This document shows, piece after piece, positions 26,101 through 29,100 of a stretch of DNA of 64,000 nucleotides. A program made the translations under genes and the position numbers. The stretch is from Pandoraea iniqua (GTDB lineage Bacteria; Pseudomonadota; Gammaproteobacteria; Burkholderiales; Burkholderiaceae), in contig NZ_CABPSF010000003.1 of the NCBI RefSeq assembly GCF_902459685.1, positions 186,001-250,000 of the forward strand. Reading direction: 5' to 3'. Each line of letters begins with the position of its first letter. Within the stretch, counting starts at the first letter, position 1. The notes under the pieces are model-generated. The model did no database searches. It was not told the origin of the DNA and saw only the letters and a list, made by a program, of their open reading frames with translations.

Positions 26101-29100
26101 GTCAACAGCGCCCACGCTGCCTGAATCATCGTGTTCAGCGTGACGCGGTGCTGGCGAGCGGCGTCGCGAAGCCGTTGATCCAATGCGCTGTCGAGCACGT
26201 CGTCGACTTGCAGCAACGGCCCCGGCGTCGCATCGTGTCCGCCCTGACCGGACGGCAGACTGGCGACGAGCGTCGCCGGTTCATCCAGCGCCTGCATGCG
26301 GCCTTGCCAATAGTCGGCGTGGTCCGGTTGTGTCGTGAGCCAGTGCACGTAATCGCCGTACTGCGGCGTCACAGCAGCCTCGGGCAACGTCTCACCCCGA
26401 TAGATCGCGAGAACTTCCGCGAGCAGTTGCCCGGCACTCCAGCCGTCGAGCAACACGTGGTGATCGGTCCAGACGAGGTCGGTCAGGCCATCGGGACGGG
26501 TGAACAGGTTCACGCGCAGCAACGGCGCCACGGCGAGGTCGAAGCCTTGCGCGAGGTCGTCCGCAAGCCACGCGTGCAGACGCGCGTCGTAAGTCGCCTG
26601 CGGGCCGGCCGACCAGTCATGCCGGGTGTACGGCAACGCCACATGGCGCGAGACGACTTGCATCGCATCGCCGCCGTGCGCCCAACTGAAGTGCGTGCGC
26701 AGGATCGCGTGACGCGCCATCACCTGCGTCCACGCGTCACGCATGCGCGCGTGATCGAGTGCGCCGCGCAACGTCAGGCGCTTCTGATTGACGTAGACGC
26801 CACGCCCCGACTGCATCAGGCTGTGGAACAGCAGACCGCTTTGCAGCGGCGTCGCCGGATAGGTCGCTTCGACGTTGGCGTCGGCCTGCCCGTGCGGTTG
26901 CGATACTTGAGACTTCGCTTTAACAACGGGCTGCGAACCCGCGTCCAGCGGCTGTGCCAACGCTGCGAGCGTCGCCACCGTCTGGGCTTCGAACAGCTGG
27001 CGTGCGGTGATTTTCCAGCCCTGTCGCGCCAGTGCCGAGACGATTTGCAGGCTCAGGATCGAGTCGCCGCCGATCTCGAAGAAATTGTCGTGGCGGCCAA
27101 TTCGATCGATTTGCAGCACGGCTTGCCATGCGGCTGCGACGGCTTGTTCGGCAGGCGAGGCCGGCGCTTCGAAGGCGTTTCGCCCGGATTGGGCTGGCGT
27201 CGAACGAATGGCAACATCGCCTTCGCCCTGATCTCCCACCAGCGCATCAACGGCCACCGGCATGACGCTGCCATCGGCGTTGTGAAGTGCCACATGACCC
27301 ACAGCGACGGACGTATCCGCGGCCAGTGCCTCACAGAACGTCACGAAGTGGTCGGCCCAGCGCGCGACGGTCGTAGCGTCGAAGAGCTCGTTCGCGTAAG
27401 TCATCGCGGCGCACACCGAGCCGTCGTCCGCCTCTTCCGTGTCGAGCGTCAGTTCGAATTGCGCATTGCGGCCCGCGATATCCATACGGGACACCGTGAG
27501 GCCGTCGAGCGCGTCGAAGACCCGATGGTCGGGCTGACGGTGATTCAGTACGACTTGAAAGATCGGCGTGTAGTGAAGGTTTCGCTCCGGTTGCAAGGCG
27601 TTGACGAGGACATCGAATGGCAGGTCCTGATGCGCCTGCGCACCGGCAACGTGGGTGCGGACGGCTTGCAATAGCGTCCCAAGCGGCTGCGTATGGTCAA
27701 CCTGCGCGTGCATCACCTGCGTGTTCACGAAGCAGCCGAGGACGTTGCCGACTTCCGGGCGTTCGCGATTGGCGACGGGCACCCCGACGCGAATGTCGTG
27801 TGCGCCGGAGTGCCGGTGCAGCATGGCCATGTAGGCGGTGAGCAAGGCGACGAAAAGCGTGCTGTCGTGGCGTTGGGCGCAGGCCCGCAGGCGGCGGGTC
27901 AATTCGGCTGGCAGGACAAACGTATGCCGTGCGGCGGTGTAATCGGCGAGCGCGAGGCGTTCACGGTCCGCCGGGAGCGCCAGCACCGGATGCTGATCGC
28001 CCAACGCCGTCCGCCACCACGCCAGTTGACGATCACGCTCACCGGCATCGAGCCAGCGGCGTTGCCACACGGCGTAGTCGGCGTACTGGACCGGCAACAG
28101 CGGCAATGTCGCCGCCGTGTGGTCCCGATGCGCCCGATAGCAGGCGACGAACTCGTCCAGCATGCGGTCGATGGACCAGCCGTCGGAGATGATGTGATGC
28201 ATCGAAACCAGCAACTGGTGCGTTTGCTCGCCCAGCTCCACGATGCCGATGCGCAACAGCGGGCCTTGCGAAAGATCGAACGTCTCACGGGCGAACGCAT
28301 CGGCCAGCGCCGCAGCGTCGGCCTCGGGGTCGTCGGCTTGGCTGACGTCGTGGTGGCGTATGCCAACCGGCATCGTGTCGTGCACGATTTGCTGCGCGGC
28401 GGCTGGCACGGCCAAGGCGCCTTCACGCCCCTTGCCCTCCTCACTCCCTTTGTTTTCGCCCTGTGCAAACGTGACGCGCAGTGACTCGTGGCGTGCGACG
28501 AGCGTATCGAACGCGGCTTGCACCGCTTGTTTCGCCGCGTCGTCGAACGCACCGTGCAGCCGCAGCCCGCCTGCGATGTGATACGCCGAGCTTTCCGGTT
28601 GCAGATGCCACAGGAACCACAGCCGCTGCTGCGCGTACGACAACGGCAGCGGCAGGCCAGCGGTTCTTTCGACTGGGACCAGCCCGGGCGCGGCAACCTC
28701 GTCTGTGGCTGCCGCCGCGCTATCGAGGGCTTCCGCCAGATCCGCCAGACTTTGATGTTCGAACAGATGGCGTGGGGACAGCGTGAGGCCGGCAAGCGCT
28801 GCCCGATTCACGACCTTCAGTGTCAGCAGCGAGTCGCCGCCGATGGCGAAGAAGTTGTCATGACGGCCGACCGACGGCACGCCCAGCACGGTCTGCCAGA
28901 CCTGCGCCAAGGTGGTTTCGGTGCCGGCATGCGGCGCGGCGTCGGTGCCGCGACCGAACGCCGGCGCGGGCAACGCCCGACGGTCCACCTTGCCGTTGGC
29001 TGTGAGCGGGAACACCGGCATCACCACGATGGCTTTCGGGACCATGTAGTCGGGTAGCACGGCCCCCAGCGCTGCGCGCAACGCCGGCACGTGCGCGTCA

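What the first reader, a model, noticed from the sequence alone, without database searches (positions are those of the whole stretch)
26900..28679. A module with no adenylation domain but carrier and downstream C domain of 'epimerase' type
Module 2 is C-T only; the A domain is cleanly missing between intact linkers. Its carrier has the GGDSILSL form shared with the two pre-epimerization carriers, and the following C domain opens like the DCL domains, yet no E domain is present. So module 2 looks like a C-A-T-E module that lost both A and E, or one that receives a D-residue in trans.
Basis: seen in the sequence. Interest (0 to 1): 0.85.

Follow-up and report, generated by a model that had tools for sequence, protein, structure and literature searches.

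The report
Conserved adenylation-less module in siderophore synthetase
A giant enzyme that probably builds an iron-scavenging peptide in Pandoraea has one assembly station lacking its own amino-acid selector; the gap is real and shared by relatives, so the station probably borrows an amino acid from a neighbour.

Summary
In the 9426-aa NRPS on the minus strand (window 5604-33884), module 2 is C-T only: 34 residues separate C2 from T2, with no detectable A-domain remnant. It is not an assembly error: five genomes of the genus and one of another genus have it in the same place. Active-site residues are kept. Against that other genus, T2 and C3 are the best-conserved T and C domains of the protein. 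C3 groups with post-epimerization (DCL) domains (SH-aLRT 100). The cluster looks like a graminine (gramibactin-type) siderophore cluster. Most likely T2 is charged across modules by A1 (threonine-type), as reported for mannopeptimycin and capreomycin, giving Thr-(D-allo-)Thr-D-graminine. This is inferred, not shown. No cluster-specific trans A domain was found. A-less C-T junctions also occur in 13 other loci fetched here, so the kind is known; its place before a DCL domain in a graminine line is the new part.

The parts
5604..33884 (-). NRPS1, 9426 aa: FAAL-T0 / C1-A1-T1 / C2-T2 / C3-A3-T3-E1 / C4-A4-T4-E2 / C5-A5-T5 / C6-A6-T6 / C7-A7-T7 / C8-TauD
28977..30458 (-). A1, code DFWNVGMVH (threonine-type by recall); proposed to charge both T1 and T2
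28728..28955 (-). T1
27288..28652 (-). C2, LCL-type, HHIISDG intact
27186..27287 (-). 34-residue C2-T2 junction where an A domain would be expected; variable between species
26958..27185 (-). T2, GGDSILSL with the phosphopantetheine serine; best-conserved carrier against G061
25578..26879 (-). C3, DCL-type, HHVLLDG intact; best-conserved C domain against G061
24060..25514 (-). A3, code DVHRTGLVA (published graminine code, nine positions)
22479..23783 (-). E1, epimerization domain of module 3
5715..6560 (-). TauD-family domain fused to the C-terminus of NRPS1 (probable Asp beta-hydroxylase)
2330..5668 (-). NRPS2: degenerate C (no HHxxxDG) - A (DLTKVGHVG, Asp) - T
33977..35074 (-). YqcI/YcgG-family protein, probably GrbE-like
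   Evidence: weak, below-cut-off GntA match
35304..36860 (-). Cupin protein, GrbD-like; 48% identical over 90% to the homologue beside the tistrellabactin NRPS
36802..37563 (-). Stand-alone thioesterase-family protein (probable type II thioesterase)
37603..37929 (-). MbtH-like protein

Best explanation
Module 2 is a working, A-less C-T module of a graminine (gramibactin-type) siderophore NRPS. Shown here: the A domain is absent, the arrangement is conserved in six genomes, catalytic residues are intact, T2 and C3 are strongly conserved, and C3 is DCL-type by phylogeny. Inferred: holo-T2 is charged across modules by A1, the threonine-type A domain of the preceding module, so one A domain serves T1 and T2. 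C2 (LCL) joins acyl-L-Thr on T1 to Thr on T2; the second Thr is presented to C3 in the D-allo form (epimerized by an E domain acting out of order, or by an unknown route), and C3 passes the chain to graminine on T3. The expected start of the product is acyl-Thr-(D-allo-)Thr-D-graminine, and the peptide would have 12 residues although there are 11 amino-acid A domains.
For: Same C-T module in G000, G006, G010, G027, G031 and G061, with the same domain order and identical or near-identical A codes (A5 and A7 vary slightly). T2 is 75% identical to G061, the highest of 8 carriers (others 47-68%), and C3 70%, the highest of 8 C domains (others 54-65%); dN/dS against G006 is 0.038 for T2 and 0.075 for C3, each the lowest of its kind. 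C3 in the DCL clade, SH-aLRT 100. Genome scan: of 12 A domains over the cut-off, 11 are in the cluster and the twelfth is not cluster-specific. Order analogy: in G125, G145 and G209, whose codes read Asp-Thr-Thr-Gra-Gly-Gra, the C domain before the first graminine is DCL-type after an E-less Thr, and gramibactin contains one L-Thr and one D-allo-Thr (PMC9679993, passage). Mechanistic precedent: mannopeptimycin [C-A-T-E-C-A-T-C-T-E], where one A serves two carriers (PMC8949500, passage), and CmnA-A1 charging A-less CmnI (PMC12400406, passages).
Against: No direct evidence for which A domain charges T2, or that any does. How D-Thr would arise without E is unexplained. T2's best outside carrier match is not a Thr carrier (L034, 68%). 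In Tistrella a C domain of the same clade follows beta-OH-Asp reported as L-erythro, so DCL type does not strictly prove a D donor. In the second dN/dS comparison (G027) T2 and C3 rank second, not first, and carriers are only about 76 codons. 28 further adenylate-forming matches below the A-domain cut-off were not examined one by one.
Confidence: 0.5

Rival explanations
1. T2 is charged by a different A domain of the same cluster (A3 graminine, A5 threonine, or one of NRPS2/NRPS3), or by a stand-alone enzyme elsewhere in the genome.
For: A-less modules charged by distant A domains are known: SyrE module 9 (PMC8949500, passage) and CmnI. An A-T-reductase protein at G000:C1:1073050-1076637 is an NRPS-type A domain outside the cluster and is present in all 5 cluster-bearing genus genomes.
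Against: That protein is in 21 of 32 genus genomes, 16 of them without this cluster, and has its own T. No A-T or aminoacyltransferase gene was recognised among the neighbouring frames scanned; several of those frames matched no family and were left open.
Confidence: 0.25
2. Module 2 is skipped or only passes the chain: C3 takes acyl-Thr directly from T1, or C2 moves acyl-Thr to the empty T2 thiol, so no residue is added.
For: No A domain; module skipping and non-elongating modules are known in principle (recalled).
Against: C2 and C3 active-site motifs and the T2 serine are kept, and T2 is the most constrained carrier against G061 and G006. C3 is DCL-type while the upstream Thr module has no E domain.
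Confidence: 0.17
3. Module 2 is a decaying remnant of a C-A-T-E module that has lost both A and E.
For: C3's nearest relatives are post-E domains (support 80); the residues before T2 (RNAFEAP) resemble the A-T linkers after A4 and A6 (seen in the sequence).
Against: Conserved across two genera with low dN/dS. No relative with an intact A at this position was found: the best matches outside the own genome in 399 order genomes are 38-42% identical. E-less DCL arrangements are common in the family.
Confidence: 0.08

Closest known systems
Mannopeptimycin NRPS [C-A-T-E-C-A-T-C-T-E] (PMC8949500, passage)
   Same: A C-A-T followed in cis by an A-less C-T; one A domain is reported to supply both carriers
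   Different: There the A-less carrier is followed by an E domain; here T2 is followed directly by a DCL-type C domain, near the start of the line, in a siderophore cluster
Capreomycin CmnI / viomycin VioI A-less module (PMC12400406, passages)
   Same: A-less module with a working carrier; for CmnI, charging by another module's A domain was shown by intact-protein MS
   Different: Separate protein, charged in trans; here the module lies inside one polypeptide
Gramibactin, megapolibactin and plantaribactin synthetases (PMC6771848, parts 1-2 of 3 of the text read; PMC9679993, passages)
   Same: GrbD/GrbE-like genes, graminine A code, Asp A domain; DCL-type C domain before graminine in the gramibactin-type lines examined
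   Different: No C-T junction seen in the 21 other non-Pandoraea GrbD clusters looked at (of 39; several incomplete), G061 apart; the Pandoraea line is longer (12 amino-acid carriers)
Tistrellabactin MobG, described as missing an A domain (PMC10391617, passages)
   Same: Reported A-less module in a graminine siderophore; D-Gln at a module without E
   Different: The deposited DNA holds both halves of a Gln-type A domain in two overlapping frames, so it is probably not A-less
Pandorabactin (pan) synthetase (PMC12144892, passages)
   Same: Same genus, FAAL start, siderophore
   Different: Different cluster: hexamodular, with hydroxy-ornithine and no A-less module mentioned; G000 has no C-domain match outside the cluster described here

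Membership tests
Graminine (C-diazeniumdiolate) siderophore NRPS cluster | A domain with code DVHRTGLVAK | tested here: met
   A3 and the last A of NRPS3 read DVHRTGLVA (nine positions; the tenth, Lys, not read) in the five genus clusters and G061; code from PMC10391617
Graminine (C-diazeniumdiolate) siderophore NRPS cluster | grbD and grbE homologues adjacent | tested here: met
   Cupin protein 35304-36860 matches the homologue beside the tistrellabactin NRPS at 48%. The GrbE assignment of the YqcI/YcgG protein 33977-35074 is weaker and rests partly on recall. No gramibactin protein itself was aligned
Graminine (C-diazeniumdiolate) siderophore NRPS cluster | Produces a graminine-containing, iron-binding peptide | not testable with these tools
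   No chemistry available
A-less C-T module charged by another module's A domain | C and T present with active-site residues, no A domain | tested here: met
A-less C-T module charged by another module's A domain | T charged by a named A domain | not testable with these tools
   Needs intact-protein MS
DCL condensation domain (C3) | Groups with C domains that follow E domains | tested here: met
   42-row clade with all 26 post-E domains and none of the 32 LCL-type after-T rows, SH-aLRT 100, quick IQ-TREE search; FastTree searches agree with weaker deep support (0.54, 0.30, 0.72)
DCL condensation domain (C3) | E domain immediately upstream | tested here: not met
   T2-C3 linker of 26 residues, no E; so C3 is DCL-like in sequence, and DCL function is inferred
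Dual C/E condensation domain | N-terminal HH[IL]xxxxGD-type motif (recalled) | tested here: not met
   C3 reads FHSLMQSGRGVY at that place

The most novel reading that the evidence does not exclude
In this siderophore family the stereochemistry of a residue is set by the C domain that follows, not by a local E domain: DCL-type C domains sit after E-less carriers wherever a D residue is expected, so an E domain from another module (or the DCL domain itself) epimerizes foreign carriers. Module 2 would be the extreme case, a carrier that borrows both its amino acid (from A1) and its epimerization from neighbouring modules.
Probability: 0.28. Interest if true: 0.7.

Novelty: new variant of a known kind. 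Interest (0 to 1): 0.45.

Why it matters
It gives a conserved in-cis example of an A-less elongation module with a DCL-type domain behind it, in a siderophore cluster type for which the paper searches made here listed no report from Pandoraea. Structure predictors that count A domains would drop one residue. It makes two questions testable with one set of domains: whether one A domain serves two carriers, and how D residues arise at E-less modules. The second question also applies to gramibactin (D-allo-Thr, D-threo-OH-Asp) and tistrellabactin (D-Gln).

Tried and rejected
Hidden A domain or A remnant in the junction: none. Assembly error: rejected, six genomes agree. A dedicated stand-alone A domain: only an A-T-reductase protein over the cut-off, not cluster-specific. 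Dual C/E domain: motif absent. Carrier type as evidence for a lost E domain: T2 scores as a pre-E carrier (+13.1 bits), but T6 (+13.7), T1 (+8.0) and T5 (+4.0) of the same protein, all before C domains, also score positive, so this does not discriminate inside this protein. Outside it, 77 of 77 pre-E carriers and 26 of 26 carriers before an E-less DCL-type domain scored positive (some rows are near-copies), and 10.6% of 160 other pre-C carriers did (Pandoraea, G061 and the Caballeronia copy L022 were left out of the training sets). Finding a relative with the A domain intact: not found in 399 order genomes at E <= 1e-90. GrbD homologues occur in 44 of 398 family genomes; I fetched stretches beside 22 of the 39 outside the own genus, of which G061 alone has the C-T module; G249, G091, G373, G219 and G298 end at contig ends and most others were read for 20-40 kb only. 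Uniqueness of the C-T arrangement: rejected. 13 other loci also have C directly before T within 100 residues, among them L026 with C-A-T-C-A-T-C-T-E; these were not studied further. Because of that count I lowered interest from 0.5 to 0.45. Two paper searches with exact phrases gave nothing; PMC7898861 (passages) gave no residue order. No structure prediction was run; it would not decide charging.

Full report
What is there. The window lies in a 6.34-Mb genome (G000:C3:186001-250000). The minus-strand frame 5604-33884 encodes a 9426-aa NRPS. HMM segmentation gives FAAL-T0 / C1-A1-T1 / C2-T2 / C3-A3-T3-E1 / C4-A4-T4-E2 / C5-A5-T5 / C6-A6-T6 / C7-A7-T7 / C8, followed by a TauD domain. NRPS2 (2330-5668) is a degenerate C, then A-T. 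NRPS3 (4579 aa from its first listed start codon, 4600-aa open frame, downstream of the window) is four C-A-T modules with a terminal thioesterase. There are 12 amino-acid carriers and 11 amino-acid A domains.

The gap. C2 ends at aa 2199 and T2 begins at 2234. The 34 residues between them give no A-domain signal (-1.1 bits, against 249 and 162 bits for A-domain ends used as controls). Pfam sees only Condensation and PP-binding. Linkers elsewhere in the protein are 21-28 residues (C-A) and 7-11 (A-T), so the junction has about the length of the two linkers joined. The residues just before T2 (RNAFEAP) resemble A-T linkers such as SAAFEAP after A4 and PTFEAP after A6 (seen in the sequence).

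It is conserved. Five of 32 genus genomes hold the T2-C3 stretch at E <= 1e-150; all five clusters have C-T at module 2 and the same codes apart from one Thr-type variant at A5. G061, another genus of the same family, has the same domain order with the C-T module, and a slightly different A7 code. Against G061, T2 is 75% identical, the highest of 8 carriers (others 47-68%), and C3 70%, the highest of 8 C domains (others 54-65%), while the linkers on either side of T2 are 36-39%. dN/dS against G006 is 0.038 for T2 and 0.075 for C3, the lowest carrier and C values; against G027 they are 0.042 and 0.071, second to T3 and C6. C2 is ordinary (60%, dN/dS 0.142). Within the genus T2 is about as conserved as T3. 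This fits a working carrier and acceptor, not a relic; no significance test was made.

What it belongs to. A3 and the last A domain of NRPS3 carry DVHRTGLVA; DVHRTGLVAK is the published graminine code (PMC10391617, passages). Upstream lies a cupin protein whose homologue stands beside the tistrellabactin NRPS, fitting GrbD, and a YqcI/YcgG protein that I take for GrbE partly from recall, with a thioesterase and MbtH. A TonB receptor, a periplasmic binding protein and FecCD permease follow NRPS2/NRPS3. So this is most likely a graminine plus beta-hydroxyaspartate siderophore cluster. It is not the pandorabactin cluster (PMC12144892, passages). Of 25 papers listed that hold at least two of Pandoraea, gramibactin, graminine and diazeniumdiolate, one names Pandoraea (PMC5878181, on fragin; listing only) and none pairs it with gramibactin or graminine. 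A genome-mining survey of metallophores does not name Pandoraea in its main text (PMC12971057, passages).

C3 type. I labelled C domains from fetched loci by what precedes them. In the first FastTree (325 C and E rows) C3 lies in the 68-row clade holding all 36 post-E domains (support 0.54). In the second (432 rows) the clade has 54 of 55 post-E domains, support 0.30. In the third (501 rows) all 67 post-E domains lie in a 126-row clade (support 0.72) with 35 of 216 after-T domains, C3 among them. In an IQ-TREE mixture-model tree (quick search) of 95 chosen rows, a 42-row clade (SH-aLRT 100) holds all 26 post-E domains, C3 and its G061 copy, 11 other after-T domains and 3 first C domains; a 43-row clade (98) holds the other 32 after-T domains and 11 first C domains; C3 with its G061 copy sits in a 25-row subclade (98), nearest to post-E domains of G236 (80). 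Labels D and L on rows of the last tree came from the earlier tree; position labels did not. C3 lacks the dual C/E N-terminal motif.

E-less is normal here. In G125, G145 and G209 the codes read Asp-Thr-Thr-Gra-Gly-Gra, with E domains only after the two graminines, yet the C domains after Asp and after the second Thr are DCL-type and the one after the first Thr is not (G298 shows the same as far as its contig goes). Gramibactin has D-threo-OH-Asp, D-allo-Thr, L-Thr, two D-Gra and Gly (PMC9679993, passage), so the DCL pattern would match the D residues even where E is missing. In Tistrella the C domain after the E-less Gln module is DCL-type and the Gln residues are all D (passages). A counter-example in the same cluster: the C domain after OH-Asp is in the same clade although that residue is reported as L-erythro. 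So a D residue on T2 is likely but not certain, and absence of E does not prove loss.

Who charges T2. The genome has 12 A domains over the NCBI amino-acid A-domain cut-off: 11 in this cluster and one A-T-reductase protein present in 21 of 32 genus genomes, of which only 5 have this cluster. Matches below the cut-off were not examined one by one. A C-A-T-C-T order in which one A serves both carriers is described for mannopeptimycin (PMC8949500, passage), and charging of an A-less module by another module's A domain is shown for CmnI (PMC12400406, passages). A1 is threonine-type, and the Thr-Thr-Gra order of the gramibactin-type lines would be reproduced if A1 charges T1 and T2. This is the reading I commit to, at about 0.5.

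How unusual. In the loci, 20 of 256 C domains that are followed by another recognised domain are followed directly by T, 17 of them within 100 residues; four of the 17 are the window's NRPS and its Pandoraea copies, 13 lie in other loci, from Nostoc, Kutzneria, Streptomyces and others. Most of the sample was fetched with a C-T junction as query, so this is no frequency. Among the graminine clusters read (5 of the genus, 22 of 39 others by GrbD, and Tistrella), only the genus clusters and G061 have it.

Side result. The tistrellabactin paper proposes iterative Gln loading because MobG lacks an A domain, and mentions a possible sequencing error (passages). In the deposited plasmid the end of MobF holds A-domain model positions 2-207, and the overlapping next frame holds 206-490 followed by T and E. 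Read apart, the two pieces give DAE and YTGSIT, close to the line's other Gln codes DAEYVGSIT and DAEYAGTIT. The extra Gln is therefore probably specified by an A domain split across frames.

Limits. Several relatives' clusters are incomplete. Specificity codes were read by alignment at nine positions; Thr, Gly and Asp assignments rest on recall or on codes seen in passages, DVHRTGLVAK on the paper. Charging, epimerization and product structure are untested.

Noticed in passing
L164 (NC_017966.1 347000-382000), frames 1331-20836 and 20355-22901: The 'missing' A domain of the tistrellabactin module MobG is present as two pieces in overlapping frames, with a Gln-type code (DAE / YTGSIT); the reported iterative Gln loading may be a frameshift artefact.
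   Followed up: partly
window 2330-5668 (-): The C domain at the start of NRPS2 has no HHxxxDG and matches Pfam Condensation only partly (44 bits); it may be the interface domain (recalled) that works with the TauD hydroxylase at the end of NRPS1.
   Followed up: no
L016:16505-19975 (-): A penicillin-amidase-type acylase (may remove the fatty acyl group) in one open frame with a HemS/ChuX haem-utilisation domain, an odd fusion.
   Followed up: no
G000 genome: All 15 condensation-domain matches of this genome lie in this one cluster, so it has no pandorabactin-type cluster; the graminine cluster may replace it in this lineage.
   Followed up: partly
G125, G145, G209 gramibactin-type clusters (L168, L169, L162, L174, L183, L184): DCL-type C domains follow E-less Asp and Thr modules at positions expected to be D in gramibactin; how these residues are epimerized is unexplained.
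   Followed up: partly
L026:2791 frame (+); also L032, L036, L037, L039, L041, L073, L082, L085, L089, L090, L096, L119: Other NRPS loci with C directly before T and no A domain between; L026 has C-A-T-C-A-T-C-T-E, close to the order described for mannopeptimycin.
   Followed up: no
G000:C1:1073050-1076637 (-), L165: An NRPS-like protein with A, T and a reductase-like C-terminus (by eye), widespread in the genus (21 of 32 genomes), product unknown to me.
   Followed up: partly
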